64,000 nucleotides of DNA from Baekduia alba (GCF_028416635.1 NZ_CP114013.1:3782001-3846000), one strand, 5' to 3'; shown: positions 10,831 to 35,307, counted from the stretch's first letter. The notes: generated by a model from the letters alone, not told the origin. Translations and numbers: made by a program.

Positions 10831-10839
10831 CCGGCGAGG

Positions 10840-11148: not shown

Positions 11149-11202
11149 GCGCGCGCACCCGCGCCGCGTGGCGGCCGGCCCAGCCGCCAGACTGCGGCCT
11201 CC

Positions 11203-13029: not shown

Positions 13030-13082
13030 TGGCGTGCCGCGGACGTTCGGCCGCAGGATCCGGGATGCTCGGCCCCGTCTGA

Positions 13083-13098
13083 CGGTCGTCGACGACCG
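13083..13098. repeat. Perfect 16-bp palindrome downstream of the fluoride operon
   Basis: CGGTCGTCGACGACCG is a perfect palindrome without loop in the short convergent interval after the DUF190 gene. It could be a terminator core or protein site; there is no T-run. Confidence 0.3.
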
Positions 13099-13146
13099 CA
13101 GGTTCCGGGTGGACCAGGCGGCGGGGAGCGCGACGGTGGCGGCGAG

Positions 13147-18261: not shown

Positions 18262-19833
18262 ATGTTCAGGACCTGGTGCGTCGCCATCATCAGCTGCGTC
18301 GCCGCGAGCGCGACCCTCGCCGGCCCGGCGGGGGCCACGCCCGCCACGCCGACGATCGCGACCGAGCAGCAGGCGCCCCTGAAGCTGCGGCTGACCAGCA
18401 GCACCGGCACGCACTGGGCGTGGACGGTCGTCGACGGCGCCGGCGCGACCGTGGCGACCGCCACCGGCAACCCCGCGACCGTCGACTTCGCGACACCGGG
18501 TGACTACACCGCGCGGCTGGACGCGACCGACGACGACCCGCTGGCCACCGGCCCCGCCCACGCGGAGGCGGCGTTCCACGTCTACGCCAAGCCGGCCGCG
18601 GCCTTCACCTCGGTCCAGCTCGCCGACGGCACCGTCCAGTTCACCGACACCTCGACGAGCGAGCCGACCACCTGGGTCTGGACGTTCCCCGGCGCCGTCA
18701 AGACGTTCAAGGGGCGCGTCCCGCCGCCGCAGGCGCTCCCGGTCGGCGTCTCCACCGTGACGCTCAAGGTGACCAACCCGGCCGGCAACAACACCACCTC
18801 GGCGCCGGTGCTCGTCAACGGGCCGCCCCAGGCGGTGCTCTCGGTCCTGTCGAGCCCGGCGGCGATGGGCGCGCCGGTGCTGCTGGACGCCAGCCGCTCG
18901 ACCGATCCCAACCAGGACGCGCTGAGCTTCGCGTGGGACCTCGACGGCGACGGCGCGTTCGGCGACGCCACCGGCGCGCTGCAGACCGTGAGCTACACGG
19001 CCCCGGGCCGCTACCGCGTCGCGGTCCAGGTCAGCGACGGCCACGGCGCGACCAGCACCGCGGAGGCCGCGATCACCGTGCTCGTCGACCTGGCGCCGGT
19101 CGTCGCCTTCAGCAACGACCCCGCCCAGCCGCTCGTCGGCGCCAACGTCGGCTTCGCCGCGACGGCCTCGGACCCCGACGGCAGCGTGACGCGGATCGAG
19201 TGGGACCTCGACGACGACGGCCAGTTCGACGACGCGGCCGGCCCGACCGCGACGTGGAGCTTCGGCACCGCCGGCGCGCACCGCGTCGCCGTCCGCGCGG
19301 TCGACGACCGGGGCGTCGCGACCGTGGCCTTCCGCACGATCGACGTGGTGAGCCCGAGCCTCCCCCGTCCGACGGACCAGCTGCAGGCGGCATCCACAGG
19401 TCCGCTGCCGCAGAGCTCGGCGCCGGGTCCGACCATCCCCAGAGGCCCGGCGCCGACGACTGCCCGCGCGAAGCTGCTCACGCCGTTCCCGGTGGTGCGG
19501 ATCCGCGGGCTGACCTACCACGGCCAGGTGCGCATCAGCCTGCTGAAGGTCCAGGCGCCGGCCGGCGCGACGATCCGCGTCCGCTGTCGTGAGGGCAGCT
19601 GCGCGGCCAAGCGCGCCGACGTCCGCGTCAAGGCGGCGCGCACGGCGGTCCGGGTGAAGTCCCTCGAGCAGCGCCTGCTCCGCGTGGGCACCATCGTCGA
19701 GGTGTTCGTGACCGCTCCCCACCGGATCGGCAAGTACACGCGGTTCACGATCCGGCGCGACGCGACGCCGGCGCGGACCGACCTGTGCCTGTCGCCGGGC
19801 CGCACGAGGCCGACCGCGTGCCCCACGACGTGA
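18262..19833 (+). CDS. Secreted PKD-domain protein
   Basis: A 523-residue secreted protein with a signal peptide (cleavage after about AGA, residue 25). It has an N-terminal Ig-like region and several PKD repeats with the family signatures FTDTSTSEPTTWVWTFPGA, LSFAWDLDGDGAFGDAT and ITRIEWDLDDDGQFDDA-type motifs (here VTRIEWDLDDDGQFDD). A Pro/Ser-rich linker (residues about 375-405) leads to a basic C-terminal beta domain (VRIRGLTYHGQVRISLLKVQ) with two Cys. PKD domains bind polymers or proteins at the surface. It ends by overlapping the next gene (GTGA). Its place beside the GH114 gene suggests a role with the exopolysaccharide. Confidence 0.75.
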   Translation: MFRTWCVAIISCVAASATLAGPAGATPATPTIATEQQAPLKLRLTSSTGTHWAWTVVDGAGATVATATGNPATVDFATPGDYTARLDATDDDPLATGPAHAEAAFHVYAKPAAAFTSVQLADGTVQFTDTSTSEPTTWVWTFPGAVKTFKGRVPPPQALPVGVSTVTLKVTNPAGNNTTSAPVLVNGPPQAVLSVLSSPAAMGAPVLLDASRSTDPNQDALSFAWDLDGDGAFGDATGALQTVSYTAPGRYRVAVQVSDGHGATSTAEAAITVLVDLAPVVAFSNDPAQPLVGANVGFAATASDPDGSVTRIEWDLDDDGQFDDAAGPTATWSFGTAGAHRVAVRAVDDRGVATVAFRTIDVVSPSLPRPTDQLQAASTGPLPQSSAPGPTIPRGPAPTTARAKLLTPFPVVRIRGLTYHGQVRISLLKVQAPAGATIRVRCREGSCAAKRADVRVKAARTAVRVKSLEQRLLRVGTIVEVFVTAPHRIGKYTRFTIRRDATPARTDLCLSPGRTRPTACPTT

Positions 19834-20381
19834 CCGGAGCCCGAGCGGCCGTCCGGCTGCTGTGCGTGCTGGCCGCCGCGGGCGCGCTGGCCGGCGGGCT
19901 GGTCGGCGGGCTGGCCGCCGGCCGGATGTCGTCGGGCGAGGCGGCGATCGCCCGCGACGCGCCGGCGCCCGCCAAGGCGGCGGTGAGGCCGCGGGCCGCC
20001 AAGGCCGCGAGGCCGGCGCCCGCCGCGAGCGCGCGCACCGCGCACCACGCCCACCGCCGCGCGCACCGGCGCCGGCACGTCAAGCGCAGCGCGCCCGCGA
20101 CGCCTGCGCCCCGGGTAACGCCCGCGCCGAGCCCGGCGCCCGTGCCGGCGGCGGCGACGACGGCGACCGACACCGCCACGGCCGGGCCGCCCGCGCCGGT
20201 GAACGACACGCCGGCGGCGGTCGCGCCGCCGCCCTCCGCCCCCAGGCCGAGCCCGAGCCCGGCGCCCACGCCGGCCCCGGCGCCCGCCGCTCGCAAGCCC
20301 GAGCCGGCGCCGGCCGGGCCCAAGCCGGAGCCCGCCGCCGCCCAGCGGCAGCCGACCGGCACGTTCGACGACTCGGGATGA
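19830..20381 (+). CDS. Pro/Ala-rich membrane-anchored protein
   Basis: A 183-residue protein starting at GTG 19830, which overlaps the PKD gene stop by 4 nt. One hydrophobic helix (LLCVLAAAGALAGGLVGGLAAG) is followed by a long extracellular Pro/Ala/Lys-rich tail with a His/Arg-rich patch (HHAHRRAHRRRHVKR). Such low-complexity tails span the cell wall or bind anionic polymers. There is no enzyme domain. An upstream GTG at 19818 in the same frame is also possible. It ends in an ATGA overlap with the GH114 gene, so the three plus-strand genes are one unit. Confidence 0.6.
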   Translation: MTGARAAVRLLCVLAAAGALAGGLVGGLAAGRMSSGEAAIARDAPAPAKAAVRPRAAKAARPAPAASARTAHHAHRRAHRRRHVKRSAPATPAPRVTPAPSPAPVPAAATTATDTATAGPPAPVNDTPAAVAPPPSAPRPSPSPAPTPAPAPAARKPEPAPAGPKPEPAAAQRQPTGTFDDSG

Positions 20382-21580
20382 CCGCGCGACGCGGCCCGCA
20401 GGTCGCGGCGCTCGTCCTCGTGGTCGCGATCCTCGCGGCCGGGGCGCTCGTCGTCGCGCGGGCCGACAGCGAGCGCGACACCGTCCTGCAGGCCGAGCGC
20501 CTGCGCGTCGCCGCCGGCAGCGGCCATGTCGTGCGCGACGCGTCGGCCGGCGGGCGGCGCGCGCTCCTGCTCACCGGCGGCGCCACCGCTCGCGGGCGCG
20601 TGCGGCTGCCCGGCGCCGCGCGGTTGACCGTGGTCGCCCGCGGCACACCGTGCGCCGGCGCCCCGCGGATCCTGGTCGCGGTCGACGGCGCGCGCGTCCT
20701 CGCGACCGCCGTGCGCGGCAGCCGGCGCTGGTCGACCCTGGCCGCCGCGCCGACGCTGCGCGCCGGCACGCACACGGTCACCCTGCGCCTGCGCAACCCG
20801 CGCCGCACCAACCGGTGCCGGCGCAGCCTGCGCGTCGATCGCCTCGTGCTCGCCGCGGCGCCGCCCGCCGCAGTCGGCCCGGCCTGGAGCCCCGCGCCCG
20901 GCATCAGCTGGCAGTGGCAGCTCACCGGGACGATCGACCTCTCCGTCGACGCCGCGCTCTACGACGTCGACCTCGTCGACACCCCGGCCGCGACGGTCGC
21001 CGCGCTGCACGACCGCGGACGCCACGTCGTCTGCTACCTCGACGCCGGGACCTACGAGCCGGGCCGGCCGGACGCCGCCGCATTCCCCGACGCGGTCCTC
21101 GGGGCAGACGTGGAGGGCTGGCCCGGCGAGCGCTGGCTCGACATCCGCCGCCTGGACGTGCTCGGACCGATCCTCGAACGGCGGCTGGACCTCTGCCGCG
21201 CCAAGGGCTTCGACGGCGTCGAGCCCGACAACGTCGACGCCTATGCCAACGCGAGCGGCTTCCCGCTCACCGGCGCCGACCAGCTGGCGTTCAACCGCTT
21301 CGTCGCCGCCGCCGCCCACGCGCGCGGCCTGTCGGTCGGCCTCAAGAACGACCTCGACCAGGCCGCCGCGCTGGAGCCCGCCTTCGACTGGGCCCTGGAC
21401 GAGCAGTGCTTCCAGTACCACGAGTGCGACGCGCTGCAGCCGTTCGCACGGGCGGGCAAGGCGGTGCTGATCGCCGAGTACGAGGGCGATCCGTCGGCGT
21501 TCTGCCCGCCGGCCCGCGCGGCCGGCTTCTCAGCGATCCGCAAGCGCCTGCCGCTCGACGCGTGGCGGCAGGCCTGCTGA
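20378..21580 (+). CDS. GH114 endo-alpha-1,4-polygalactosaminidase (Ega3-like)
   Basis: A 400-residue secreted or anchored protein. A hydrophobic signal/anchor (about 10-28) is followed by a beta-sandwich region (about 40-165, RGRVRLPGAARLTVVARGT) that resembles a carbohydrate-binding module. The C-terminal catalytic domain of GH114 starts at ISWQWQLTGTIDLSVDAALY. Family motifs are VVCYLDAGTYEPGRPD, GWPGERWLDIR, GFDGVEPDNVDAYAN (acidic catalytic loop), LSVGLKNDLDQ and DEQCFQYHEC. Family members hydrolyse alpha-1,4-linked galactosamine in Pel and in fungal galactosaminogalactan. It faces the PelF-like operon tail to tail, so its substrate is probably the polymer made there. Confidence 0.88.
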   Translation: MTARRGPQVAALVLVVAILAAGALVVARADSERDTVLQAERLRVAAGSGHVVRDASAGGRRALLLTGGATARGRVRLPGAARLTVVARGTPCAGAPRILVAVDGARVLATAVRGSRRWSTLAAAPTLRAGTHTVTLRLRNPRRTNRCRRSLRVDRLVLAAAPPAAVGPAWSPAPGISWQWQLTGTIDLSVDAALYDVDLVDTPAATVAALHDRGRHVVCYLDAGTYEPGRPDAAAFPDAVLGADVEGWPGERWLDIRRLDVLGPILERRLDLCRAKGFDGVEPDNVDAYANASGFPLTGADQLAFNRFVAAAAHARGLSVGLKNDLDQAAALEPAFDWALDEQCFQYHECDALQPFARAGKAVLIAEYEGDPSAFCPPARAAGFSAIRKRLPLDAWRQAC

Positions 21581-21587
21581 CGGCGCG

Positions 21588-22550
21588 TCAGTAGGCGCAG
21601 TACAGCGTCCCTCCCCCGGACGCCGCCGCGCCCGCCGTCCCGGCGTTGACGTACTGCCACTGGTGGTCGGGCCGGCCGCCGACCCAGTAGACGATCTCGT
21701 AGACGCCGACCGCGACGATCCCCTGACCGGTCGGGATCGCGATCGGACCCTGGGTCCAGGGCACGGGCGTCGGCGTCCCGTCGGGGTGGAACTGGGCGAT
21801 GCCCGCGACGGTCGCGGTCCACGTCGCCCAGCGTCCGGCGCCCTCCCCGCCGGTCCCGTACCAGTGCCAGCCACCCGCCGGCGTGTACCAGGCGATCCAG
21901 CCGCGGGTCGAGACCGGCGTCGGCGTCGCGGTCGTGAAGTCCGGCTCGACGAGGTAGGCCTGCGGCGCGCCCGCGCTGTCAGTGCACTGCAGGTGGCCGT
22001 CGGTCCAGAAGCCCTTGGCCGCCGGCGCGGCGCCCTGGCCCGCGCGCAGCTGGAAGTACAGCTTGGACGAGCGGCCGGCCTGGGTGACCGAGAGGGTGGC
22101 GGCGACCGCCTTGTGGCGCACGAGCCGCTTGGCGACCTTGGACGACACGGTCAGCCGCGCGGTCGCGCGGTTGGCCGCGCAGCGGTACCCGCTGCGTGCG
22201 AATGGCGCCTTGGACACCACCTTGGCGCTCACCCGCACCGAGCCGTTCTGCTGGCACGCCAGCGGGACCGAGAAGGTGCGCCGCGCGCGGTTGAGGCTCA
22301 CCGGCGCGTTGCCCAGCAGGCCAGGGCCGGTCGTCCCGCCGGGGATCGCGCCCGGCGCGCCGGGCGGGACGACCGCCGGCGCGGTGCCCGGAGGCGCCGG
22401 CAGGTCGCCGCCGTTGCCCGGCGGCGGGCCGGGCGGCGCCTGGGGCGCCTGGGCCGCGGCGCCGGCCGGGAGGCCGGTAGCAAGCGCGAGCGCCGCCAGC
22501 AGCGCGGGCGCCAGTCGGTGAGGACCGCAGAGCGGGAACGACATCATCAT
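21588..22550 (-). CDS. Secreted protein of unknown function, last gene of the exopolysaccharide operon
   Basis: A 320-residue secreted protein: signal peptide (LAPALLAALALATGLPAGAAA), a Pro/Gly-rich linker (about 35-85), a small two-Cys beta domain (FSVPLACQQNGSVRVSAKVV through LTVSSKVAKRLVRHKAV) and a Trp/Tyr/Gly-rich C-terminal domain with WTDGHLQCTDSAGAP and GWIAWYTPAGGWHWYGTGG. Aromatic-rich beta domains of this kind often bind carbohydrate, but I recognise no family. The start region has three consecutive ATGs (22550, 22547, 22544) behind an AAAGGAG site; 22547 has the best spacing (7 nt). It lies 31 nt after the small membrane gene. Confidence 0.55.
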   Translation of the reverse strand: MMMSFPLCGPHRLAPALLAALALATGLPAGAAAQAPQAPPGPPPGNGGDLPAPPGTAPAVVPPGAPGAIPGGTTGPGLLGNAPVSLNRARRTFSVPLACQQNGSVRVSAKVVSKAPFARSGYRCAANRATARLTVSSKVAKRLVRHKAVAATLSVTQAGRSSKLYFQLRAGQGAAPAAKGFWTDGHLQCTDSAGAPQAYLVEPDFTTATPTPVSTRGWIAWYTPAGGWHWYGTGGEGAGRWATWTATVAGIAQFHPDGTPTPVPWTQGPIAIPTGQGIVAVGVYEIVYWVGGRPDHQWQYVNAGTAGAAASGGGTLYCAY

Positions 22551-22581
22551 GGTGCTCCTTTCAACGGACATGCACGTGCGG

Positions 22582-23091
22582 TCATTCGCCCGGCGGCTCG
22601 GGCCGGTCGCGCAGCTGGCCGCCGATCGCGGCGCGCAGCGTCTCGACCCGCTCGAGCTGCGCGGCGTAGGCGGCGTCGTAGACGGACTGGTGGCGGGCGT
22701 GCGCGAGGATCCCGAGCGGCTTGGGCGGCGGGGCGGCGGGTCGCTCCTCCGCCACCGCGAGCGCGACCGGGGCGGGCACGGGCGCGCGCTCGACCGCACG
22801 CTCCGGGCGCGACAGCCGCGCGGGCTCGACGAGCACGCCCGCGGCGCGCCGCCGGCCGAGCTGCGGTGGCGGCACGTAGCCGAGCAGCATCCCCACCAGC
22901 AGCGCCGGGACGAGCCCGACGATCACGCCGACGACCGCGCCGAGGCCGACCAGCAGCACGGTGATGGGCGCGGAGCGGTCCGGCGCCTGGACGACGGTCG
23001 TCGTGTCGGCCGCGGCGGCCTCGACGCCGCCGCCGACGATCGCGGCGATCAGCAGCACGAGCAGCACCGCACGCCAGCCGCTCATCCGCAT
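22582..23091 (-). CDS. Small membrane protein of the exopolysaccharide operon
   Basis: A 169-residue protein with two hydrophobic helices: one at about 8-27 (WRAVLLVLLIAAIVGGG, possibly a signal peptide) and a long one at about 45-72 (ITVLLVGLGAVVGVIVGLVPALLVGMLLGY). A soluble tail follows, ending in a short helix (YDAAYAAQLERVETLRAAIGG). ATG 23091 has GAGG upstream, while ATG 23085 overlaps the previous gene's stop (ATGA); either is possible. The family is not recognised. Position within the operon suggests an accessory membrane factor of the secretion machinery, comparable in place though not in sequence to PelE. Confidence 0.5.
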   Translation of the reverse strand: MRMSGWRAVLLVLLIAAIVGGGVEAAAADTTTVVQAPDRSAPITVLLVGLGAVVGVIVGLVPALLVGMLLGYVPPPQLGRRRAAGVLVEPARLSRPERAVERAPVPAPVALAVAEERPAAPPPKPLGILAHARHQSVYDAAYAAQLERVETLRAAIGGQLRDRPEPPGE

Positions 23092-23858
23092 GTCGCCAGC
23101 GCCTCGACTTCCTCGTCCAGGTAGTCCGGGAGCGTGCGCCACGGGTTGGGCAGCGCCCCGGACGTCGCGTAGACGTAGCCGGCCGCCGAGCCCGACAGGG
23201 CGTCGAGCGCGTCGGCGCGGCTCGCGCCGTAGACCAGGTGCGCGACGCGGTCGCGGTCCTCGCGGCGCAGCCATCCGGGCGTCGCGCGCAGCGCGTCGGC
23301 GTACGCCGCGGCGGTCCCCTCGAAGGTCACCACGACGTCGGCCAGGTCGAAGTAGCCGGGGGCGGGCGGCACGCCCGGGTTGAGCACCACCAGCCGTCCG
23401 GGGTCGCCCCGCGCCGCGCGCGCCAGGGCACGGTAGTGGGCGAGCTGGGCCTCGTCGGACGCGGCCTCGTCGAAGAAGATCCCGTCGACGCCGTACCAGG
23501 AGACGAAGCGGTCGACGTCGGCCAGCCCCGCGTGCAGCGGCCGCCACCCGTAGCCGGTCGGGACGTAGCCGAGCACCCTGACGCCCGCGGCCTGAAGGGC
23601 GTGGACCGCCGCCGCGTAGGCCGGGCTGCGGCGCGCGCCGGGACCGCTGTCGGGGTTGACGATCACCATGCGCGGCCGCCGCGCGGCGCCGACCAGCGCG
23701 GTCAGCTCGTGCGGCGGCAGGTAGGCCGGGATGAGCGCCTCGCGGCACGTCGCGCCGCGCTCGGCGCCGCGGTGCAGCAGCGCGATCACCACCGCGACCG
23801 CCACGCCGGCGACCGCGACGACCACCGCGACGCCCGGTTGCGACACGAAGGCCCTCAT
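23082..23858 (-). CDS. Spherulin-4 family (GH135/Sph3-like) glycoside hydrolase
   Basis: A 258-residue protein with one N-terminal TM anchor (about 9-28) and an extracellular TIM-barrel of the spherulation-specific family 4. Hallmarks: LIPAYLPPHELTALVGAA at the first strand, MVIVNPDSGPG, VRVLGYVPTGYGWRP, WYGVDGIFFDEAASD (acidic catalytic strand) and VVLNPGVPPAPGYFDLAD followed by VVTFEG. In fungi the GH135 member Sph3 cuts galactosaminogalactan and is needed for its production. The acidic residues in the FFDE strand are intact. It is joined to the multi-TM gene and the next membrane gene by ATGA overlaps. Involvement with an alpha-1,4-galactosamine polymer fits the PelF, CE18 and GH114 neighbours. 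Confidence 0.85.
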   Translation of the reverse strand: MRAFVSQPGVAVVVAVAGVAVAVVIALLHRGAERGATCREALIPAYLPPHELTALVGAARRPRMVIVNPDSGPGARRSPAYAAAVHALQAAGVRVLGYVPTGYGWRPLHAGLADVDRFVSWYGVDGIFFDEAASDEAQLAHYRALARAARGDPGRLVVLNPGVPPAPGYFDLADVVVTFEGTAAAYADALRATPGWLRREDRDRVAHLVYGASRADALDALSGSAAGYVYATSGALPNPWRTLPDYLDEEVEALATCG

Positions 23859-25174
23859 GGGATCCACAGCGACGTCGCGAGGGTGGTCGCGGGACGGCGC
23901 AGCCGCGCCACGACGACGGGCAGCACGAGCAGCGCCACGACGAGGCCGCCGACGACCAGGCCGGCGCCCGGGAAGGGATCGACGTCGCCGAGCCACACCG
24001 CCGCCTCGGCGGCGGCGCCGCACACGACGGCGACCAGCGCCCAGCGCCCGCGGCCCAGCGACTCGAGCAGGCCGACGAGCATGCTCGCCAGCGCCACGAG
24101 CGCGAAGCCCGTCAGGACGCCGGCGCCGCGTGCGCTCCCGCCCAGCCACGGAGACAGCCACAGCAGCGGCGCCGACAGCGCGGCGCTGAGCGCCAGCAGG
24201 CGCCCGAGCGCGCCGAGCAGGACCCGCGTCGGACAGCGCCCGAGGCGGCGCGTGCCGGTCCCGTCGACGGCGACGCCGGACAGCGCCTTGGGGATCGCGA
24301 GCTCGAGGTGGCGCAGGTGGTGGCCCGCCAGCAGGGCGGCGAGCGTGGACGGGATCAGCGCCAGCGCCGGCACCGCGCCGTCGGTCCAGCTCACCGTCCG
24401 GTCCAGCACGAGCATCACGCCCAGCCCGACGCCGATCGCGCCGGCCACCGCCACGGGCTCGCCGGCCCCGAGCGAGCGGCGCGCGACCGCGGGCGACGGG
24501 CGCAGCGCCACGGCGGCGGCCAGCAGCGTGGCGGCCGCCGCCGCGGCGACGACCTCCAGCGCCGGCGCGCCCGACAGCATCGCGGCCGTCGCCAGCAGGA
24601 TGATCAGCACGTAGACCGCCGGCCAGCGCCGCCGGATCAGCACGGTCCCGCCGGTCCAGGTGACGGTCAGCAGGCCGGCCAGCAGCCCGCCCGTCCCCAG
24701 CGCGAGCGCCGGCAGCGCCACGACCGCGACCGCCCCGGCCAGCAGGAGGAGGCGGTGTCGCGCCAGCTGCGCGATGCCCTGGGGCCGGTCCAGGAACCGG
24801 CTGCCGAGCGCGCGCTGCAGCGCGAGCGTGAGCGGCAGGGCGAGCACGAGCGCGCGTTCGACGGCCTGCAGCCCGACGCTGGTCGTCAGCGGCGCGGCCC
24901 AGCACGCGATCGCGACGACGGTGAGCAGGAACGCCGCGCCGTCGGCGAGGACGCCGTCGCGCTCGCCACCGCGCGGGAGCCGGCCGACGCTGGGCTGCGC
25001 GGCGGCCAGCGCCGCGGGCATCGTGGCGCTGGCCGCGGCGAGCGCCGCCTGCGCCGGCATGCCGGCCCAGGCCTCGAGGACGACCGCGGCCTCGAGCAAG
25101 TCCTGGGGCTCGCGCCCCAGGCGCGCCTCGACGAGCAGCCGCGCGTCGCCCAGCTCCGTCGACGTCGCGGTCAC
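23855..25174 (-). CDS. Multi-TM protein, possible PelG-like polysaccharide transporter
   Basis: A 439-residue protein starting at GTG 25174 with a GTGA overlap with the PelF-like gene. About 80 soluble residues come first (GREPQDLLEAAVVLEAWAG), followed by roughly 11-12 hydrophobic helices separated by short basic loops (RRRWP, RLRRP). It has the size and helix number of PelG, the MOP/MATE-type protein that partners PelF in Pel systems. However, I do not see PelG's usual N-terminal FELRKL and SGPW motifs, so the assignment is by position and topology only. It could be a distant PelG replacement that moves the polymer out as PelF makes it. Confidence 0.55.
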   Translation of the reverse strand: MTATSTELGDARLLVEARLGREPQDLLEAAVVLEAWAGMPAQAALAAASATMPAALAAAQPSVGRLPRGGERDGVLADGAAFLLTVVAIACWAAPLTTSVGLQAVERALVLALPLTLALQRALGSRFLDRPQGIAQLARHRLLLLAGAVAVVALPALALGTGGLLAGLLTVTWTGGTVLIRRRWPAVYVLIILLATAAMLSGAPALEVVAAAAAATLLAAAVALRPSPAVARRSLGAGEPVAVAGAIGVGLGVMLVLDRTVSWTDGAVPALALIPSTLAALLAGHHLRHLELAIPKALSGVAVDGTGTRRLGRCPTRVLLGALGRLLALSAALSAPLLWLSPWLGGSARGAGVLTGFALVALASMLVGLLESLGRGRWALVAVVCGAAAEAAVWLGDVDPFPGAGLVVGGLVVALLVLPVVVARLRRPATTLATSLWIP

Positions 25175-26745
25175 GCGCGCGCTCCCACCGCGGCGACGAG
25201 CAGGTCGACGTCGTCGTCGTCGCCCGAGAGCGCGCCCAGCAGCTCGCGGTAGCCGTCGACGCAGGCGCGCTCGTTGAACAGGCGGCCGAGACGGCTGTGC
25301 CCGCGCTGCCCGAGGCGCCAGGCCAGATCGGGGTTGCGCAACAACATGACCACCGCCGTCGTCAGCGCGTGATCGTCGCCGGGCGCGCACACCAGGCCGC
25401 AGCCGCGCACGACCTCGGGCACGCCGCCGACGCCGGTCGAGACCACCGGCCGGGCCTGGCCCATGGCCTCGAGGATCGCCATCGGCAGCCCCTCGGAGAT
25501 GCTCGTCATCAGGACCACGTCGCTGGCGCGCACCACGCCGGTCGGGTCGGCCGTCGCGCCCATGAACCGGAAGCGCTCGCCCAAGCCCAGCCGCGCGTGC
25601 AGCGCCAGGCACGACTGCCCGTAGATCTCCTCGCCGCGGGGCACCGGGCCGTAGTGCAGAAAGCGGGCGTCGGGCAGGTGCGTCGTCGCCTGGGCCGCCA
25701 CCCGCAGCATCGTGTGGGCGTCCTTGAGCGGGTCGAGGCGGCCGACCGAGACCACGGTGCGCGTGCAGGGCGGCGGCGTCGGCGCCGACGGCGGCTCCAG
25801 CCCGTTGTAGAGGACCAAGATCTTGTTGGGGTCGATGCCCAGGCCCATCTCCCAGTAGGCATTGGCGTCGGTGACGGGCGAGACGACGTCGGCCGCGGCG
25901 TACGCGGTGCGGGCCAGGCCGCGCGCGAGCCGGGTCGCGGCGAAGCGGCTGCCGGGCGAGTCGCCGTTGCGCGCCGCGGCGAGGTAGGCCTCGCGCACGT
26001 AGACGCCGTGCTCAGTGAGCACCATCGGCGTCTCGTGCAGCGCCTTGTGCACGACGGCGGGGATCGCCGCCCAGCCGGCCGCGGTGACGTGCAGCGCGTC
26101 GGTCGGCGGCGTCGGCACCGCCGCGGTGCGCGCGACCCAGTAGAGCGTCTGGTACAGCGTGGCCGCCTCGACGAGGTCGAGCGCCGGCGGCGTGCCGGCC
26201 TCCGGGATGCGCTCGGCCAGGACCGCGCGCAGGCCCTCCAGGAACGCCGCCCACCCCTGCGCGGACCGGAAGGCCCGCCGCACGCCGCCGGGATGGCGGC
26301 GGCACCAGACCCACGCGGCGACCACCGCGTCGGTGCTGCCCTCCCAGCCCAGCAGGTTGCGGACGAGCATCGAGGGCAGCTCCACGCCCGACCGGCGGTC
26401 GCCGCGACCGCCGCGCGCGAGCTTCGGCAGCTCCTCCGACCACACCTCGACGGGCCCGATCTCGGTCGCGTGGCGCGGGAGGGCGAACGTCGGCGGCCGG
26501 CCGTGCGGGGCGACGATCGGCATGACCTGCCAGTCGAACTCCGTGAGGCTGTTGACCATCAGGTCGCACCACGAGCTGACGCCGCCCATGATGTAGGGGT
26601 AGGTGCCCTCCGTCGTCAGCAGGATCCTGCGACGCGCGGGCTGAGGCGCGATCCTCCCGCTGCCCCACGCCCGCGCGCTCGCAACGCGCAGCCCCGAGAC
26701 AGGTGCGGGGTCGCGCAGCTCAGACGACACGGGAGCCGTAGCCAT
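25171..26745 (-). CDS. PelF-like GT4 glycosyltransferase
   Basis: A 524-residue cytosolic glycosyltransferase. The first domain shows the PelF fingerprint ILLTTEGTYPYIMGGVSSWC, then a Rossmann half with LHVTAAGWAAIPAVVHKALHETPMVLTEHGVYVREAYL. The second domain has the GT-B nucleotide-sugar motifs NKILVLYNGLEPP, VVSVGRLDPLKD, RFMG and the catalytic E-x7-E region SDVVLMTSISEGLPMAILEAMG, followed by GGVPEVV. PelF uses UDP-GalNAc (or GlcNAc) to build the Pel polymer, and its DUF3492-type N-terminus is diagnostic. It overlaps the coiled-coil gene by 26 nt. No UDP-sugar 4-epimerase lies in the immediate operon. Confidence 0.88.
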   Translation of the reverse strand: MATAPVSSELRDPAPVSGLRVASARAWGSGRIAPQPARRRILLTTEGTYPYIMGGVSSWCDLMVNSLTEFDWQVMPIVAPHGRPPTFALPRHATEIGPVEVWSEELPKLARGGRGDRRSGVELPSMLVRNLLGWEGSTDAVVAAWVWCRRHPGGVRRAFRSAQGWAAFLEGLRAVLAERIPEAGTPPALDLVEAATLYQTLYWVARTAAVPTPPTDALHVTAAGWAAIPAVVHKALHETPMVLTEHGVYVREAYLAAARNGDSPGSRFAATRLARGLARTAYAAADVVSPVTDANAYWEMGLGIDPNKILVLYNGLEPPSAPTPPPCTRTVVSVGRLDPLKDAHTMLRVAAQATTHLPDARFLHYGPVPRGEEIYGQSCLALHARLGLGERFRFMGATADPTGVVRASDVVLMTSISEGLPMAILEAMGQARPVVSTGVGGVPEVVRGCGLVCAPGDDHALTTAVVMLLRNPDLAWRLGQRGHSRLGRLFNERACVDGYRELLGALSGDDDDVDLLVAAVGARA

Positions 26746-27184
26746 CGCCCTGCTCGATGTCCGTGTCGGCGTGCGTCGCCGGCGGGCGCGAGCGCGCCGC
26801 GCCGAGCGCCGCCAAGGCGTTCAACTTGCCTTCGAAGGCCACCATCGCCCGCTCGACCTCCTGGCAGATCTCCAGGAGCGACTCGCGGATGAGCAGGCCC
26901 TCGACCAGCAGCTGCTCGACGTCGTCGCTGACGCTGTCGCGGTCCAGCTCCGCCGCCGCGAGCGACCGCGCGCGGCCGATGAGCCGGCTGACGTCCGCGC
27001 GCTGGTGCTGGGACGCCTTCAGCCGGGCGTTCTCCTCGCGCAGCAGCAGCAGCTCGGCGTGGACGGCGGCGATGCTCTCCGGATCGCCGATCGTCTCCGC
27101 CATCCGGTCGGTCCGGCGACGGAAGCGCCGCCGGGGCTCGTCCGGGGCATCGTCGGGCGGGCGCCCCACGACCTCGCCGCTCAT
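26720..27184 (-). CDS. Cytosolic coiled-coil protein of the exopolysaccharide operon
   Basis: A 154-residue protein without membrane segments. A basic N-terminus (PRRRFRRRTDRMAETIG) is followed by heptad-rich stretches: IAAVHAELLLLREENARLKA and later VEQLLVEGLLIRESLLEICQ, EVERAMVAFEGKLNAL. A coiled-coil dimer or scaffold is likely. It starts by an ATGA overlap with the deacetylase gene and ends inside the PelF-like gene. The family is unknown. It may be a cytosolic organiser of the synthesis complex, comparable in location to cytosolic parts of other Pel machines; this is inference. Confidence 0.55.
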   Translation of the reverse strand: MSGEVVGRPPDDAPDEPRRRFRRRTDRMAETIGDPESIAAVHAELLLLREENARLKASQHQRADVSRLIGRARSLAAAELDRDSVSDDVEQLLVEGLLIRESLLEICQEVERAMVAFEGKLNALAALGAARSRPPATHADTDIEQGDGYGSRVV

Positions 27185-30100
27185 CGGCCACGCACCACGT
27201 GGAAGGTGACGTGCCGGGGCCCGGCCTTCTGCCGTCCGGCCGTCGCGGTGACGGTCAGCCGGTAGGTGCGCGGCGCCAGCGGCCTGGCCTTGAACCGCCC
27301 GGTGAAGCGCAGCACGTTCGTGCCCTTGGGTGCCGAGCGCCGCAGCGTGCCGACGGTGACCCACCGGCGATGGTGCTTGGACCCGACGCGCCGCTGGACG
27401 ACGAGGCGCACCTCCGCGGCCTTGCTCAGGCGCCAGGTGATCCGCGAGCCGTCCAGGCGCGTGCCGCGCTGGCGCAGGCGGTGGGCGACGGCGAAGCGCT
27501 TGGGACTCATCTTGACGTTGGTCAGCGCCAGCTTGGCGGAGGCCTTGTCGTCCTTCTTCCTGCCCTGCCCGGAGACGCCGACCGAGCCGGGTCGCCCGCT
27601 CGTGCCCGCGGCCTTGGGCGGGTCCGGTGCCTTGGCCACCGTGTCGGTCGCGGCCGAGGTCGCCTGGCTGACCGACGCGATCCAGTTGCCGGCCGAGACC
27701 ACGACGCGCAGCGTCGCGCCGACGTCGTCGGCCCCGGCGACGTAGTCGCCCGCCCTCGCGCCGGCGATGCTCTTGCAGCCCTGCCCCTTCGTGTCGCAGC
27801 GCTGCCACTGGTAGCCGTAGTCGATCGTCGGCGTCCCGGTCCAGGTGCCGGTGCGGGCGCTGAGCCTGTCCCCCGCGCGCGGCGTGCCCGCGATGGTCGG
27901 GACCGCCGTGTTGGTCGGCTCGTCGGGCGCGAGGACCTGCTCTGCGCCGGGCGCGATCGTCTTCCACCCCGAGCGCTGGCCGCCGTAGAGGTCGCCGACG
28001 GTGGTGCCGGTGATCGGGACGTCGACGGGCGCGGTGCTCGCGTTCTTGACGTGCAGGCGCCCGTCCTGCAGCCACGCGCTGACGTCGCCCGCGGCGAGGT
28101 GCGCCGCCCAGGCGCTCTGCTGCGCGAGCGCCGCACCGATCTGCGCGCTGGTCAGCTGCACCAGCGGCGCCTTGGCCCGGTCGATCGCGGCGTCGTAGCG
28201 CGCGAGCAGCCCGTCGACGACCGGGTACAGGATCCCGCCCTGGCCCGGGTCGGTCTCCGGCAACGCCGGGTTGTAGTCGGCCAGGTTGCTCTGGTGCATG
28301 AAGTGCGGCCGCGGGTCGTTGCCCATCAGATGGCGGAACATGATGGTGTTCTCGCTGGTGAGGTACTCGGCCCACGTCGCCGGCGTCGTGCGGCACGTCG
28401 TCACGCCGGCGATCGGCACGCAGCCGCCGCCGTTGGCGGGCGCCACGTAGATCCAGTTGTACTCGTCGAGCTGCTGGCCCTGGCGCGAGACGTTGTAGTA
28501 CACGTTGCTCGGATAGCGCGGGATGGCCTGGAAGCTCGCCGGCGGCGTGCCCTCGCTGAACGTGGCGCCCAGGCCCCACTGCGGCCCGGCCACGTCAGCC
28601 GGCGTCTGCGGGTAGGTCTTGGACGCGTCGGTCGCGACGACGCGGATGCCCGCGGTCAGCAGGCCGGCGAGGGAGTTGGGGTTCTGCCCGTACGGAGCGA
28701 TCGTCGCGGCGTTGGCGGCCGGCGGCGCGCCGGCGGTGCCCGCGGCCTTGTCGTCGAGCACCGTCAGCGTCACCGGGGCGGTGCCGTCGTCGGTGGGCGC
28801 GGTGGCCGACCGCGCGACCGTGCCGACGAGCTCCCAGGCACCGGCGCCCCCGGCGCTCCGGTACAGCTGGTAGCTCACCGCGTGGCACACGGCGTTGAAC
28901 GACACGTCGACGCTGTTGCCGGTGGTCCCGGCCGCGCCCACCACGACGCCGGACACGATCGATGCCGTCGACTCTCCGGCGGCTGAGCGGGCCGACACGG
29001 CGTAGTCGTAGGTGCCCGACGGCACGCCAGTGGTGCTCGCGGGGGTCGTCGTGGTCGGCGGCGTCGTGGTGCTGGGCGGCGCCGTGCCCGTGTGGGGGAC
29101 GATGTCGTCGATCGAGGGCGGGTCGATCGTGCCCGGGTTGCCCGGGCGGGAGTTGGCCAGGCCGGAGTGCTCGCCGGTCACGACCTCGCGCGGGTCGATC
29201 GCGATGCCGCGCGCGGCGGCCCAGGCGACGTTGTCGTTGACCTCCTTGCTGATGAACGAGGCCGACGAGCAGTCCAGGTTCGGGTGGTCGAACGTGTGGT
29301 TGACGAAGCCGAACGACGCCTTGTTGGCCTGGATCGCCGCGACGAGCGGATCGGTGGCCGTGTCGTTCGCCGCGTTCTCGTCGTTGTTGACCTGGTCCAG
29401 CCACAGCGCGCTGCCGCCGCCGTTGTAGGCGAAGTCGATCCGGAGGTTGCGCGCCTTGGACCACTGCACCGCCTGGGCGACGTCGCCCGCGCTCATGCGG
29501 CTCGCGGCGGCCGGGTCGTAGTTGGTGGTGTGCGTGGCCGGGTCCCAGGCGTCGTCGCCGAGGAAGAGGTCGTCGACCTGAAGCTCGAGGTAGTTGCGCT
29601 GGATGCCGAGGAAGACGCCGCGCGTGACCCAGTTGAGCATCCCGTGGCGCAGCAGCTGGACGTGGCTCTGGTTCTCGTTGCCGGCCACCGTCATGACCAT
29701 CTCCTCGCGCCCGTCGTCGGGGTGCGTGTAGATGCCCAGGTACGCGCCCCCGCCCGGCGCGCTGACGAGCGTCTGCCAGTTGGCGGCGTCAACCGGCGTC
29801 CCGGCGTAGCCGAAGGCCTCGCTGGACGCCGGGTTGGGGTCGTCGTCGGGGATCGGGAGCGGCCCCTTGAGGTAGGGGAAGGCGTCCTTGCCGGTCGCGG
29901 TCAACGTGCCGACCTTGCCGTCCTGGCGGACGCCGCCCACCGTCACGAGCCCGTGGGCGGGGCTCGGCGCGGTGTAGTCGCTGAGCTGGCGGACGCCGAA
30001 CGTCCGCTCGAACTTCGCCAACGCCGACCATTCGGCGTCGGTGAGCGCGGAGAGGTAGGACGTCGTCGCGTCGGCGTTGGTCACCTGGTGGCCGAGGTCG

Positions 30101-30408
30101 CCCGAGGCGAGGATGACCGCGTCGTACTTCGCGTGCTGGTCGCCGTAGTCGGCGAGCTGCGCGTCGGTCAGCGTGCTCGTCTTGGCGGCTCCGGTGTAGG
30201 CGACGACCGCGTCGAACGGGACGCCCTCGCGGGCGAGCTCGTACTTCCAGGCGGCGAAGCCCGGCTCGGTGCCGTCGGCGGAGAGCAGGAGGACCTTCGC
30301 GTCCAGCCGCTGACCGGGCCCGATGCGGTTGGGCCCGGCGGCGAGCACGACCGGGACGGCGACGGCGACCAGCGCGAGCGCCACGAGCAGGACCACGCGC
30401 CATCTCAT
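27181..30408 (-). CDS. CE18/Agd3-like polysaccharide deacetylase with inserted FN3 domain
   Basis: A 1075-residue exported protein. A TM/signal (about 5-24) precedes a beta/alpha region (about 37-250: AKVLLLSADGTEPGFAAWKY). The NodB-like core starts with YLELQVDDLFLGDD (metal-binding Asp pair near 279-280) and VNHTFDHPNLD (HxxxH near 370-374). A Thr/Pro linker and an FN3-like insert (about 440-560, GTYDYAVSARSAAGES) interrupt it, and the core resumes with YGQNPNSLAGLL and the late NTIMFRHLMGNDPRPHFMHQ. After it come an Ig-like module (YGYQWQRCDTKGQGCKSI) and a basic C-terminal domain. This order matches fungal Agd3 (CE18), which N-deacetylates galactosaminogalactan. GGAGGTG lies about 7 nt before ATG 30408. 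It overlaps the sigma gene (ATGA). Confidence 0.8.
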   Translation of the reverse strand: MRWRVVLLVALALVAVAVPVVLAAGPNRIGPGQRLDAKVLLLSADGTEPGFAAWKYELAREGVPFDAVVAYTGAAKTSTLTDAQLADYGDQHAKYDAVILASGDLGHQVTNADATTSYLSALTDAEWSALAKFERTFGVRQLSDYTAPSPAHGLVTVGGVRQDGKVGTLTATGKDAFPYLKGPLPIPDDDPNPASSEAFGYAGTPVDAANWQTLVSAPGGGAYLGIYTHPDDGREEMVMTVAGNENQSHVQLLRHGMLNWVTRGVFLGIQRNYLELQVDDLFLGDDAWDPATHTTNYDPAAASRMSAGDVAQAVQWSKARNLRIDFAYNGGGSALWLDQVNNDENAANDTATDPLVAAIQANKASFGFVNHTFDHPNLDCSSASFISKEVNDNVAWAAARGIAIDPREVVTGEHSGLANSRPGNPGTIDPPSIDDIVPHTGTAPPSTTTPPTTTTPASTTGVPSGTYDYAVSARSAAGESTASIVSGVVVGAAGTTGNSVDVSFNAVCHAVSYQLYRSAGGAGAWELVGTVARSATAPTDDGTAPVTLTVLDDKAAGTAGAPPAANAATIAPYGQNPNSLAGLLTAGIRVVATDASKTYPQTPADVAGPQWGLGATFSEGTPPASFQAIPRYPSNVYYNVSRQGQQLDEYNWIYVAPANGGGCVPIAGVTTCRTTPATWAEYLTSENTIMFRHLMGNDPRPHFMHQSNLADYNPALPETDPGQGGILYPVVDGLLARYDAAIDRAKAPLVQLTSAQIGAALAQQSAWAAHLAAGDVSAWLQDGRLHVKNASTAPVDVPITGTTVGDLYGGQRSGWKTIAPGAEQVLAPDEPTNTAVPTIAGTPRAGDRLSARTGTWTGTPTIDYGYQWQRCDTKGQGCKSIAGARAGDYVAGADDVGATLRVVVSAGNWIASVSQATSAATDTVAKAPDPPKAAGTSGRPGSVGVSGQGRKKDDKASAKLALTNVKMSPKRFAVAHRLRQRGTRLDGSRITWRLSKAAEVRLVVQRRVGSKHHRRWVTVGTLRRSAPKGTNVLRFTGRFKARPLAPRTYRLTVTATAGRQKAGPRHVTFHVVRGR

Positions 30409-31076
30409 GCCGACACCTCCAACAACTCGCGGTCGGGTCGTGCCGTCCGCGGCAGGCGCGCGACGGCCGGGGCCGAGCCCAGGTCGGTCAGCGTCGCCCG
30501 CACGGCGGCGCGCCCGCGGTAGTGCAGCCCGTGGACGGCGCGCACGCTGCACCCGAGCACCGCGGCGATCTCGTGCGGCGACAGGCCGACGAGGTGCGTG
30601 AGCAGCAGCACGTCGCGCTGACCCTGCGGCAGCAGGGCCAGCGCCGCCCGCAGCGCTGATCGCACCTCGCCGGCGCCCTGGTCGTCGCGCGCGCGGGTCT
30701 GGTCGACGTCGTCGACCGGCACGGCGCGCGCACGGCGGACGTGGTCGATCGCGGTGTTGCGCGCTACGCGCAGCACCCAGACGATGAACGGCGCCTCGCC
30801 GGGGCGGTAGCGGTCCAGGCCCGTCAGCAGCTTCGCGAAGACCTGCTGCGTGACGTCGTCGGCGTCGTCGAGGTCCTTGAGGACGCGCAGCACGTGCGCG
30901 TGGACGGCAGGGGCATGCAACACGTACAGCTCGGCCATCGCGTCACGATCGCCGGCGCGCGCGGCGCCCACGACGCGGCGCGTGCGCAGCTCGTCGACGG
31001 GGCTCACCGTCGGAGCCGCATCCGCGCGGCGTTCAGCGGCAGCACGCGATGGCCGCGTGCGGCAAGACGTCCACAT
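30405..31076 (-). CDS. ECF-type sigma factor leading the exopolysaccharide operon
   Basis: A sigma-70 family protein of about 223 residues. Region 2: DAMAELYVLHAPAVHAHVLR, DLDDADDVTQQVFAKLL and FIVWVLRVARNTAIDHVRR. Region 4: LLPQGQRDVLLLTHLVGLS followed by PHEIAAVLGCSVRAVHGLHY. A basic N-terminus and a C-terminal tail without a membrane helix are present, so no covalent anti-sigma is fused. ATG 31076 is chosen because GGGGGAT lies just upstream; GTG 31007 is an alternative. Being first in the operon with an ATGA overlap to the deacetylase, it probably drives its own operon and perhaps the facing PKD-GH114 genes. Confidence 0.85.
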   Translation of the reverse strand: MWTSCRTRPSRAAAERRADAAPTVSPVDELRTRRVVGAARAGDRDAMAELYVLHAPAVHAHVLRVLKDLDDADDVTQQVFAKLLTGLDRYRPGEAPFIVWVLRVARNTAIDHVRRARAVPVDDVDQTRARDDQGAGEVRSALRAALALLPQGQRDVLLLTHLVGLSPHEIAAVLGCSVRAVHGLHYRGRAAVRATLTDLGSAPAVARLPRTARPDRELLEVSA

Positions 31077-31326
31077 GCCATCCCCCGAGTCCGTTCGGTC
31101 CACTAGGACCTCTGTGCTGCCGGGCTTGCGGCCGGCACCAACTGACTTCGACGCGACCTTAGGGACCGCGTGCCCGATCAAGCCCTGGATCCCGGTTAAG
31201 AAGTTGTTGGCACACCCCCCGAAAGAGGAGGGTTTGTCGAACGTCGCCGTTCACGTGGAAGATCGGTAAGTGACGACGTCTCTGCACGGGTACCACGCAG
31301 CAAGCGGTACAAGGACGGGAGGTGGA
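31077..31326. promoter_or_regulatory. Divergent regulatory interval
   Basis: About 250 nt separate the divergent sigma-factor and SARP genes. The stretch is less GC-rich than its flanks near 31190-31265 and holds a small inverted repeat, GAACG-tcgc-CGTTC, at about 31238-31251. I see no riboswitch. Both promoters probably lie here. Confidence 0.35.
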
Positions 31327-32505
31327 GTGTCTAGGCAGGGACAAGACGCGTCCGACGGTCAGGCGTTCACCGACGCCGAGCTCGCGCTCCAGGTCGTCGA
31401 TCGCTCGCCCGCGGCCGTGATCGTCCAGGACGCCCGCGGACGCGTCGTCGCGGTCAACCGCGCGGCGGTGCAGATGCTCGGCGGGGCCGTGAGGCTCGAG
31501 CCCGGCGCGCGCGTCGGCTGCGGCGTCCTCGGGTGCCGCTCGCCGGGCACGCGGCTCGACGGCGTCTGCGTGCACGAGCTGGCCCTCGCCCGCGGCGAGC
31601 CCCTGCCGCCGCTGCGCGTCGAGCTGCCCGCCGGGGCGGAGTTCGACGTCGCGTCCGCGACGATCGTGGCGCTGCCGCTCGGCGACGGCCTGGTCGTCAC
31701 CGAGCTGCGCCGCGACTTCGGGCACGCGGCGCGGGAGCGCGGGGGCTCGCCGACGTGGTCGGCCGAGCCGCAGCTGCGGGTCTTCGTGCTCGGGCGCACG
31801 TGCGTCATGAACGGCGACGAGGTCCTCGACGGCCGCTGGATCAACAACCGCGCCGGCCACATCCTCAAGCTCCTGGTCGCCGAGCGCCATCGCAGCGTCT
31901 ACTCCGACGAGATCATCAGCGTGCTCTGGCCGCCCGACTCGTCGCCCGACACGCGCGGCGTGCGCTACTTCGTCCACGAGCTGCGCGACCAGCTCGAGCC
32001 CGGCGGCGCGGCGGACCCGCCGTCGTCGTTCGTCGTCGCGACCCGGGGCGGCTACGCGCTGGACCGCCAGCGAGTGTGGGTCGACGCCGACGCCTTCGAG
32101 CGCCTCGTGACCGAGGGCTGCGCGGTGGCCGGCGCCGACGACGAGCGCGCCCGGGCGCTGATCCGCGACGGCGTCGCGATGTACCGCGGCGACTTCCTGG
32201 CCGACGAGCCCTACGCCGAGTGGGCGCTGCCCGAGCGCGACCGGCTGCGCGACCTCGCCGCCGGGGCCCTGCGGATCCTGGCCGAGATCGAGACGCGCGG
32301 CGGCGACCTCGCCGGCGCGACCGCGACGCTCACCCGGCTGACCGAGCTCGAGCCGTTCGACATCGACGTGCACCGCGAGCTGTTCGCGCTGCTGCTGCGG
32401 CGCGGGCGGCGCAGCGAGACCCTGCGCCGCTACGAGACGCTGCGCCGGCGGATGCTCAGCACGTTCGACGAGCGGCTGGACTTCTCGCTGTCGCAGCTGA
32501 GCTAG
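31327..32505 (+). CDS. PAS-domain SARP/BTAD transcriptional regulator
   Basis: A 392-residue regulator. Residues about 12-110 form a PAS-like sensor (ALQVVDRSPAAVIVQDARGR, then VAVNRAAVQMLGG). A winged-helix DNA-binding domain of the OmpR/SARP type follows (LRVFVLGRTCVMNGDEVLDG and RYFVHELRDQLEP, then VVATRGGYALD). The rest is a bacterial transcriptional activation domain with TPR-like helices (ERLVTEGCAVAGADDERARA to FALLLRRGRRSETLRRYE). GTG 31327 follows GGGAGGT; an upstream GTG at 31270 is also in frame. It is divergent from the exopolysaccharide sigma factor and may sense a small ligand, redox or oxygen. Confidence 0.85.
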   Translation: MSRQGQDASDGQAFTDAELALQVVDRSPAAVIVQDARGRVVAVNRAAVQMLGGAVRLEPGARVGCGVLGCRSPGTRLDGVCVHELALARGEPLPPLRVELPAGAEFDVASATIVALPLGDGLVVTELRRDFGHAARERGGSPTWSAEPQLRVFVLGRTCVMNGDEVLDGRWINNRAGHILKLLVAERHRSVYSDEIISVLWPPDSSPDTRGVRYFVHELRDQLEPGGAADPPSSFVVATRGGYALDRQRVWVDADAFERLVTEGCAVAGADDERARALIRDGVAMYRGDFLADEPYAEWALPERDRLRDLAAGALRILAEIETRGGDLAGATATLTRLTELEPFDIDVHRELFALLLRRGRRSETLRRYETLRRRMLSTFDERLDFSLSQLS

Positions 32506-32534: not shown

Positions 32535-32873
32535 TCACTCGCAGCGGCGCGCGCCGCCGCCCTGCGTGGCGGTGAAGACGACCTTGGCCACCGTGTTGCT
32601 GCGGTAGCGGACGACCTCCGCCTTGCGGGCGCTGATCATGGTCCCGTAGGTACCGGTGAGCTGTCCTCCGCGACGGCAGTCCATGACGACGCGGCCGTCC
32701 CGGCGGGCGACGCGGCAGCCCAGGGACGCGCCCTCGACGGTGACGCGGTCGCCGACCTTCAGGACGACCGGCTGCTGCGGGTCGGCCGCGCTCGCGCCGT
32801 CACGCGGCGCGAGGGCCAGCATGGCCGCCGCGCCGGCGAGGACCGCGGCGCCGGTCGCGAGCGCGCGGCTCAT
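32535..32873 (-). CDS. Small secreted protein, unknown function
   Basis: A 112-residue protein with a signal peptide (LATGAAVLAGAAAMLALAP) and a beta-rich mature domain (PVVLKVGDRVTVEGASLGCR, VVMDCRRGG, AEVVRYRSNTVAKVVFTATQ) with three Cys, including one at the C-terminus (GGARRCE). It begins with an ATGA overlap with the repeat-protein gene and is its operon partner. I do not recognise the family. An extracellular role beside the wall-spanning repeat protein is plausible. Confidence 0.6.
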   Translation of the reverse strand: MSRALATGAAVLAGAAAMLALAPRDGASAADPQQPVVLKVGDRVTVEGASLGCRVARRDGRVVMDCRRGGQLTGTYGTMISARKAEVVRYRSNTVAKVVFTATQGGGARRCE

Positions 32874-35155: not shown

Positions 35156-35307
35156 TGCGGGCCTCGCCTCAGCTCGTTGGTGGTCGTTCTCCGTCTCAGT
35201 CAGCGTCTCCAATGGAGATTTCGCACAACCTCGGCGGCACGACCGACCTTTTCTGGGTACACCTAGGTCGTCACTGAGGACGAGGAGGGATCGAGATCGC
35301 TGACGCG

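What the first reader, a model, noticed from the sequence alone, without database searches (positions are those of the whole stretch)
18262..31076. Hybrid 'galactosaminogalactan/Pel' exopolysaccharide locus under its own sigma factor
Sequence shows, within 13 kb, a PelF-like GT4 (TEGTYPYIMGGVSSW), a CE18/Agd3-like deacetylase (VDDLFL, HTFDH), a spherulin-4/GH135 protein (GIFFDE) and a GH114 enzyme (DGVEPDNVDAY). Established: in the fungus Aspergillus fumigatus the GAG cluster consists of Agd3, Sph3, Ega3 and a GT4, while bacterial Pel uses PelF with PelA. Inference: this bacterium has separate fungal-type modifying enzymes around a bacterial-type polymerase, plus a dedicated ECF sigma factor, a coiled-coil protein, a multi-TM PelG-like candidate and new secreted proteins. 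No PelA, PelB, PelC or PelD is visible, so the export route would be new.
Basis: partly seen in the sequence, partly recalled or inferred. Interest (0 to 1): 0.9.

Follow-up and report, generated by a model that had tools for sequence, protein, structure and literature searches.

The report
Bacterial galactosamine-polysaccharide (GAG/Pel-like) operon
This soil-type actinobacterium carries a real, conserved gene cluster for making and trimming a sticky positively charged sugar polymer like those of Aspergillus and Pseudomonas biofilms; such bacterial clusters were already published in 2020, so it is a new example with its own membrane translocase family rather than a new kind of system.

Summary
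An eight-gene minus-strand operon (31076 to 21588, most junctions 4-bp overlaps) encodes an ECF sigma factor, a CE18/CBM87 deacetylase, a short coiled-coil-like protein, PelF, a 12-helix membrane protein, a spherulin-4/GH135 protein, a small membrane protein and a secreted protein. It converges on a PKD, Pro-rich, GH114 operon (18262-21580). Catalytic residues of all four enzymes are intact. The membrane protein folds as a MOP-superfamily transporter (MATE/MurJ/WzxE) but is not PelG by sequence. Twenty other loci (Solirubrobacter, Conexibacter, Kineococcus, uncultured Actinomycetota) pair it with PelF without exception. CE18 and the coiled-coil-like protein are present in 17 each, the rest being truncated contigs; GH114 is in 13. 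One Solirubrobacter locus adds an epimerase and so holds counterparts of all five Aspergillus GAG genes. The concept is not new: Bamford et al. 2020 (PMC7229062) reported bacterial agd3 operons with a glycosyltransferase, a multi-spanning membrane protein, GH114 and, in Actinobacteria, spherulin-4. The 'own sigma factor' is supported only within the genus, and absence of PelB/PelC is normal for Gram-positives. What remains of interest is a PelF clade with a non-PelG translocase and no PelD.

The parts
30405..31076 (-). ECF-type sigma factor, 223 aa (ATG start; a TTG start at 31181 is possible), first gene of the operon
   Evidence: Pfam Sigma70_r2 4.5e-17 and r4_2 2.6e-12; 4-bp overlap with the next gene; ortholog at the same place only in same-genus L069, 68-69%
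27181..30408 (-). CE18 polysaccharide deacetylase with CBM87 (Agd3 homolog), 1075 aa, secreted
   Evidence: Pfam Agd3_CE 4.6e-14, CBM87_Agd3 1.5e-8; Agd3 structure 6nwz 7.8e-13; D279, D280, H371, H375, R631, H705 invariant in 28 homologs
26720..27184 (-). short soluble coiled-coil-like protein, 154 aa, family unknown
   Evidence: no Pfam or NCBIfam match; profile relative in 17 of 20 loci, the other three being contig-truncated; heptad-like helix read from sequence, not computed
25171..26745 (-). PelF-type GT4 glycosyltransferase (predicted polymerase), 524 aa
   Evidence: DUF3492 6.6e-33; NCBIfam PelF equivalog above cut-off; EX7E, K341, R336 invariant in 35 homologs
23855..25174 (-). 12-helix membrane protein, 439 aa, MOP-superfamily fold with a ~60-residue N-terminal cytosolic helical extension (ARLGRxPQDxLEAAVVLEAWxG); predicted translocase partner of PelF
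   Evidence: AF2 model pLDDT 82, pTM 0.78; Foldseek and VIA hits led by MATE/MurJ/WzxE, Z up to 20.6; next to PelF in 20 of 20 loci
23082..23858 (-). Spherulin-4 / GH135 (Sph3-like) hydrolase, 258 aa, N-terminal membrane anchor
   Evidence: Pfam Spherulin4 2.9e-39; Sph3 structure 5c5g 7.6e-12; acidic residues D130 and E180 invariant in 11 rows
22582..23091 (-). small membrane protein, 169 aa, two hydrophobic segments and conserved C-terminal helix
   Evidence: no family; short C-terminal similarity in Solirubrobacter loci L073, L075
21588..22571 (-). secreted protein, 327 aa, family unknown, conserved with the locus
   Evidence: 38-67% identity in Solirubrobacter and Conexibacter loci; AF2 model too poor to use
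20378..21580 (+). GH114 endo-alpha-1,4-galactosaminidase (Ega3-like), 400 aa, convergent
   Evidence: Pfam GH114 1.1e-82; Ega3 structure 6oj1 3.8e-57; D279, D284 invariant and E342 present in all 19 rows that cover it, of 20
19830..20381 (+). Pro/Ala-rich basic protein with N-terminal hydrophobic segment, between PKD and GH114 genes with 4-bp overlaps on both sides
   Evidence: no family; not found in the other loci
18262..19833 (+). secreted PKD-domain protein, 523 aa, first gene of the convergent GH114 operon
   Evidence: Pfam PKD_4 2e-28; not found in the other loci
31187..31207 (-). conserved block ACAACTTCTTAACCGGGATCC upstream of the sigma gene (possible promoter)
   Evidence: conserved with L069; single occurrence in the window, none in 100 shuffles

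Best explanation
The locus makes, exports and remodels a GalNAc-based, partly de-N-acetylated exopolysaccharide of the GAG/Pel type. Proposed order: UDP-GalNAc is supplied by an epimerase encoded elsewhere (inferred); PelF polymerises it in the cytosol (family-level evidence); the MOP-fold membrane protein, docked to PelF through its N-terminal helices, carries the chain across the single membrane (inferred from fold and strict pairing with PelF); the secreted CE18/CBM87 enzyme removes acetyl groups outside, giving a cationic adhesive polymer (all CE18 catalytic motifs present); the anchored GH135 enzyme and the secreted GH114 enzyme cut acetylated and deacetylated stretches respectively, for trimming or release (by homology to Sph3 and Ega3). 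The ECF sigma probably helps transcribe the minus-strand operon, but this is untested.
For: Four independent enzyme families known from GAG/Pel chemistry lie in two adjacent operons, each with intact catalytic residues and matches to the solved enzymes Agd3, Ega3 and Sph3. Translational coupling. Conserved in 20 other loci across at least three genera: PelF and membrane protein 20/20, CE18 17/20, coiled-coil-like 17/20, GH114 13/20. One Solirubrobacter locus also contains a sugar-nucleotide epimerase-family gene, whose 58% homolog is elsewhere in this genome; other loci carry GlmS and CofD/YvcK-family genes. Related clusters on Deinococcus, Streptomyces and Kocuria plasmids hold CE18, pelF, a membrane protein, GH114 and, in the last two, spherulin-4. 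MOP fold of the membrane protein. Prior art in PMC7229062.
Against: No chemistry: I found no report of the polymer being isolated from this group. GT4 sugar specificity cannot be read from sequence. PelD/PelE-like partners, needed for Pel in B. cereus, are not seen. No epimerase is in the window. The membrane protein shows no detectable sequence link to PelG. The role of the sigma factor and of the three unknown proteins is inference.
Confidence: 0.78

Rival explanations
1. The cluster makes a different amino-sugar or cell-wall glycan (for example a GlcNAc- or mixed hexosamine polymer, or a wall-attached teichuronic-type chain), and the GAG-type enzymes act on that.
For: GT4 donor specificity is not predictable; CE18 sits in a CE4-like fold; GlmS and CofD/YvcK-type neighbours in some relatives fit hexosamine supply in general, not GalNAc specifically.
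Against: GH114 (3.8e-57 to Ega3), spherulin-4 and CE18 are all known from alpha-1,4-GalN/GalNAc polymers (PMC7229062); PelF equivalog match.
Confidence: 0.15
2. The hydrolases and deacetylase are there to attack or feed on polymers of fungal or bacterial neighbours, and the PelF/membrane protein pair serves an unrelated surface glycan.
For: GH114 and spherulin-4 genes occur outside such clusters; soil habitat of the group; the GH114 gene here is in a separate convergent operon with a PKD protein.
Against: CE18, PelF, membrane protein and spherulin-4 are translationally coupled in one operon, and CE18-PelF-membrane protein linkage is kept across genera; spherulin-4 is membrane-anchored rather than freely secreted (N-terminus read from sequence).
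Confidence: 0.06

Closest known systems
Bacterial agd3 operons of Bamford et al. 2020 (PMC7229062)
   Same: CE18/CBM87 deacetylase with a cytoplasmic glycosyltransferase, a multi-spanning membrane protein, GH114, and spherulin-4 in some Actinobacteria
   Different: The window adds an ECF sigma, a coiled-coil-like protein, a small membrane protein and a 327-aa secreted protein; the paper's main text does not mention Conexibacter or Solirubrobacter, and its supplements could not be read
Aspergillus fumigatus GAG cluster (uge3, sph3, gtb3, ega3, agd3)
   Same: Counterparts of agd3, sph3, ega3 and a GT4 synthase; one Solirubrobacter relative also has a sugar-nucleotide epimerase-family gene (L073)
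Gram-positive Pel operon pelDEA(DA)FG (Bacillus cereus, PMC7112168)
   Same: PelF next to a MOP-fold membrane protein, plus an extracytoplasmic deacetylase and a hydrolase
   Different: No PelD found in the genome, membrane protein is not PelG by profile, deacetylase is CE18/CBM87 rather than PelADA (CE26/CBM114, PMC13254593)
MOP superfamily exporters (MATE, MurJ, WzxE; PelG by family knowledge)
   Same: Predicted fold over residues 65-437
   Different: Own N-terminal extension and no Pfam family; paired with PelF rather than with lipid-linked glycans

Membership tests
Bacterial agd3-type exopolysaccharide operon (PMC7229062) | CE18 deacetylase with CBM87 and motifs CM1-CM4 | tested here: met
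   Pfam PF25115 and PF25116; CM1 DD, CM2 HxxxH, CM3 R, CM4 H invariant in 28 homologs
Bacterial agd3-type exopolysaccharide operon (PMC7229062) | cytoplasmic glycosyltransferase plus multi-spanning membrane protein in the operon | tested here: met
Bacterial agd3-type exopolysaccharide operon (PMC7229062) | GH114 gene in or next to the operon | tested here: met
   20378-21580, convergent, 7 bp from the operon end
Bacterial agd3-type exopolysaccharide operon (PMC7229062) | makes a GalNAc/GalN polymer | not testable with these tools
   needs chemistry
Pel operon | PelF | tested here: met
   NCBIfam NF038011 126.5 bits over cut-off 100
Pel operon | PelG (PF16933) | tested here: not met
   no match in operon or genome; profile comparison with 10 PelG proteins E 0.35. 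Superfamily fold is shared
Pel operon | PelD (PF16963) | tested here: not met
   no match in the genome
Pel operon | PelE, PelADA or PelA | tested here: inconclusive
   none among the operon's Pfam or NCBIfam matches, genome not searched with their models
Aspergillus-type GAG cluster | all five functions Uge3, Gtb3, Sph3, Ega3, Agd3 linked | tested here: not met
   no linked epimerase found in the window's operons; best homolog of the L073 epimerase is at 5.35 Mb of the genome, 58%. An epimerase-family gene is linked in L073
MOP superfamily (for the membrane protein) | two six-helix bundles of the MATE/MurJ type | tested here: met
   model with pLDDT 82; the 50 rows shown are MATE/MurJ/WzxE, Z 10-20 over 300-349 residues; fold only, no sequence match

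The most novel reading that the evidence does not exclude
A distinct PelF clade of Actinomycetota works with a MOP-superfamily translocase that is not PelG, coupled through its N-terminal helices and a dedicated coiled-coil-like protein. That would be a minimal GAG/Pel synthase without PelD/PelE and so without the usual c-di-GMP gate, in one genus placed instead under an ECF sigma factor of a subfamily that also occurs beside other polysaccharide clusters.
Probability: 0.4. Interest if true: 0.5.

Novelty: new member of a known kind. Interest (0 to 1): 0.36.

Why it matters
It extends the GAG/Pel-type cationic polymer machinery to Solirubrobacterales with a complete, well-conserved gene set. 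A Solirubrobacter locus holds counterparts of all five fungal GAG genes, which bears on the published idea that fungi acquired the cluster from bacteria. The strict pairing of a PelF clade with a non-PelG MOP protein gives a simple system in which to test whether PelF plus one MOP protein is enough for synthesis and export.

Tried and rejected
Sequence link of the membrane protein to PelG: profile comparisons with 4 and 10 PelG proteins gave nothing. An intermediate set of PelF partners (A6) does align with PelG over 392 columns (E 1.6e-6) and shares an N-terminal motif with the Streptomyces/Deinococcus/Kocuria partners (3e-15), but its match to the window family is only a short PQDxLEAAVVLEAW ~ PVDxLxxAAxLESxG stretch (P 0.018). 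A D-x4-W motif at the end of helix 7 occurs in both families; I treat it as suggestive only. Function of the 327-aa secreted protein: AF2 model pLDDT 56, not searched further. Sigma as a conserved part: rejected beyond the genus. Shared promoter for the convergent operon: block found once only; the general sigma70 scan is uninformative at this GC content. RNA elements and tRNAs: none. Plasmid relatives of the membrane protein: none. Two searches of the class with the A6 family failed on the server. Several large ORFs on the opposite strands were rejected as GC-rich shadow frames by codon-position GC.

Full report
Observation. The region holds an eight-gene minus-strand operon, 31076 to 21588, and a three-gene plus-strand operon, 18262 to 21580, ending 7 bases apart. 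Most junctions are 4-bp stop/start overlaps: sigma/CE18, CE18/coiled-coil-like, PelF/membrane protein, membrane protein/spherulin, PKD/Pro-rich and Pro-rich/GH114. The genome is one contig of 5.86 Mb, 74.8% GC in the window, so spurious open frames are common; the genes named here were kept on codon-position GC, family matches or conservation in relatives.

Families. Pfam gives DUF3492 and GT4 for the 524-aa protein, Agd3_CE plus CBM87 for the 1075-aa protein, Spherulin4 for the 258-aa protein, GH114 for the 400-aa protein and sigma-70 regions 2 and 4 for the 223-aa protein. NCBIfam's PelF equivalog model is passed. PDB comparison finds Agd3 6nwz (7.8e-13), Ega3 6oj1 (3.8e-57) and Sph3 5c5g (7.6e-12). 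Against the motifs described for Agd3 (D377, D378, H510, H514, R613, H668; PMC7229062), the window protein has D279, D280, H371, H375, R631 and H705, all invariant in 28 homologs; the catalytic motifs of PelF, GH114 and, mostly, spherulin-4 are likewise intact. The assignment of R631 and H705 to CM3 and CM4 rests on sequence context and the weak third domain of the 6nwz alignment. The spherulin second acidic residue E131 is replaced by R in 3 of 11 rows.

Membrane protein. It has no Pfam, NCBIfam or PDB sequence match. An AlphaFold2 model from 18 homologs (pLDDT 82, pTM 0.78) matches MATE, MurJ and WzxE structures over residues 65-437 (Foldseek best 1.9e-4; VIA Z 10 to 20.6 in the rows shown). 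It is not PelG by family: PF16933 is absent from the genome and is rare in the phylum (7 of 396 genomes over the cut-off), and the profile comparison with PelG is null. Its first ~60 residues form a near-invariant helical extension, ARLGRxPQDxLEAAVVLEAWxG. PelF partners in other Actinomycetota and Deinococcus carry a comparable N-terminal helical motif, and one set of them aligns with PelG end to end. This suggests, without proving, a continuum from PelG to the window family.

Conservation. One scan of 84,980 species genomes with the membrane-protein family found 20 loci, two of them near-identical records of one strain. All have PelF directly upstream; CE18 is in 17, the coiled-coil-like protein in 17, GH114 in 13, spherulin-4 in 6, the 327-aa secreted protein in 6. 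The loci without CE18 or the coiled-coil-like protein are contig-truncated. PelFs of these loci plus the window form one group separated from all other PelFs with full support, so the PelF clade and the membrane family go together. In the family of the window the locus is patchy: 13 of 146 genomes have a PelF at E below 1e-150. Candidatus Solirubrobacter pratensis (L073) has CE18, coiled-coil-like, PelF, membrane protein, spherulin-4, small membrane protein, secreted protein and a sugar-nucleotide epimerase-family gene in a row, with GH114 convergent. In the window's genome the best homolog of that epimerase lies at 5.35 Mb (58%). NCBIfam does not assign the L073 epimerase to a specific function, so UDP-GlcNAc 4-epimerase is inference.

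Sigma factor. It is the first gene of the operon and overlaps CE18. The same arrangement exists in the one congener with the locus (69%), where a 21-bp block upstream is conserved. In Solirubrobacter genomes the best homologs (46-48%) lie elsewhere. Two members of this sigma subfamily, one of them in the congener, sit beside other polysaccharide genes, read by eye from sequence (L122, L125). One Solirubrobacter locus has a different ECF sigma (31%) upstream of CE18. A role in regulating polysaccharide genes is plausible; 'dedicated to both gene sets' is not shown.

Prior art. Bamford et al. [quoted passage not shown] Plasmid loci found here in Deinococcus ficus, Streptomyces californicus and Kocuria rosea have this composition, spherulin-4 in the last two only (in Streptomyces the Agd3 match is weak); the Kocuria cluster is flanked by transposase genes. 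Gram-positive Pel clusters lack PelB and PelC, so their absence is not a sign of a new export route in a monoderm bacterium. I therefore classify the locus as a new member of a known kind, with a translocase family and accessory genes worth naming.

Mechanism and limits. Shown: gene order, coupling, families, catalytic residues, predicted fold of the membrane protein, conservation. Inferred: substrate, order of action, export by the MOP protein, docking through its N-terminus, regulation by the sigma factor. No tool here can show the chemistry.

Noticed in passing
window 35928-39140 (-): A 1070-aa protein combining a SARP-type winged helix and BTAD domain, a Vgb/PQQ-like beta-propeller and a family-5 solute-binding-protein domain: an unusual regulator fused to extracellular-type sensor domains.
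   Followed up: no
window 32870-35212 (-): 780-aa protein made largely of repeats such as APVVGPTAGAVDSATQAV with a C-terminal membrane segment; its 64% homolog is also near the locus in the congener L069.
   Followed up: no
window 31270-32505 (+): PAS plus SARP/BTAD regulator divergent from the sigma gene, conserved at the same place in L069 (66%).
   Followed up: partly
L122 and L125 (G381:C17 and G302:C232): Members of the same ECF sigma subfamily (46-50% identity) lie beside other polysaccharide genes (Wzz-like, aminotransferase, acyltransferase; read by eye from sequence).
   Followed up: partly
L115 (Kocuria rosea plasmid), 4517-13585: A compact CE18, pelF, membrane protein, spherulin-4, GH114 cluster bracketed by two transposase genes with the same protein accession on a plasmid: looks like a transposable exopolysaccharide cassette.
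   Followed up: no
L063, L064, L065: Loci in Solirubrobacteraceae with two PelF-like genes in tandem, next to a membrane protein that is distantly PelG-like in L063 and L065, without CE18.
   Followed up: partly
window 59960-62812 (-): Large and small subunits of a NiFe hydrogenase.
   Followed up: no
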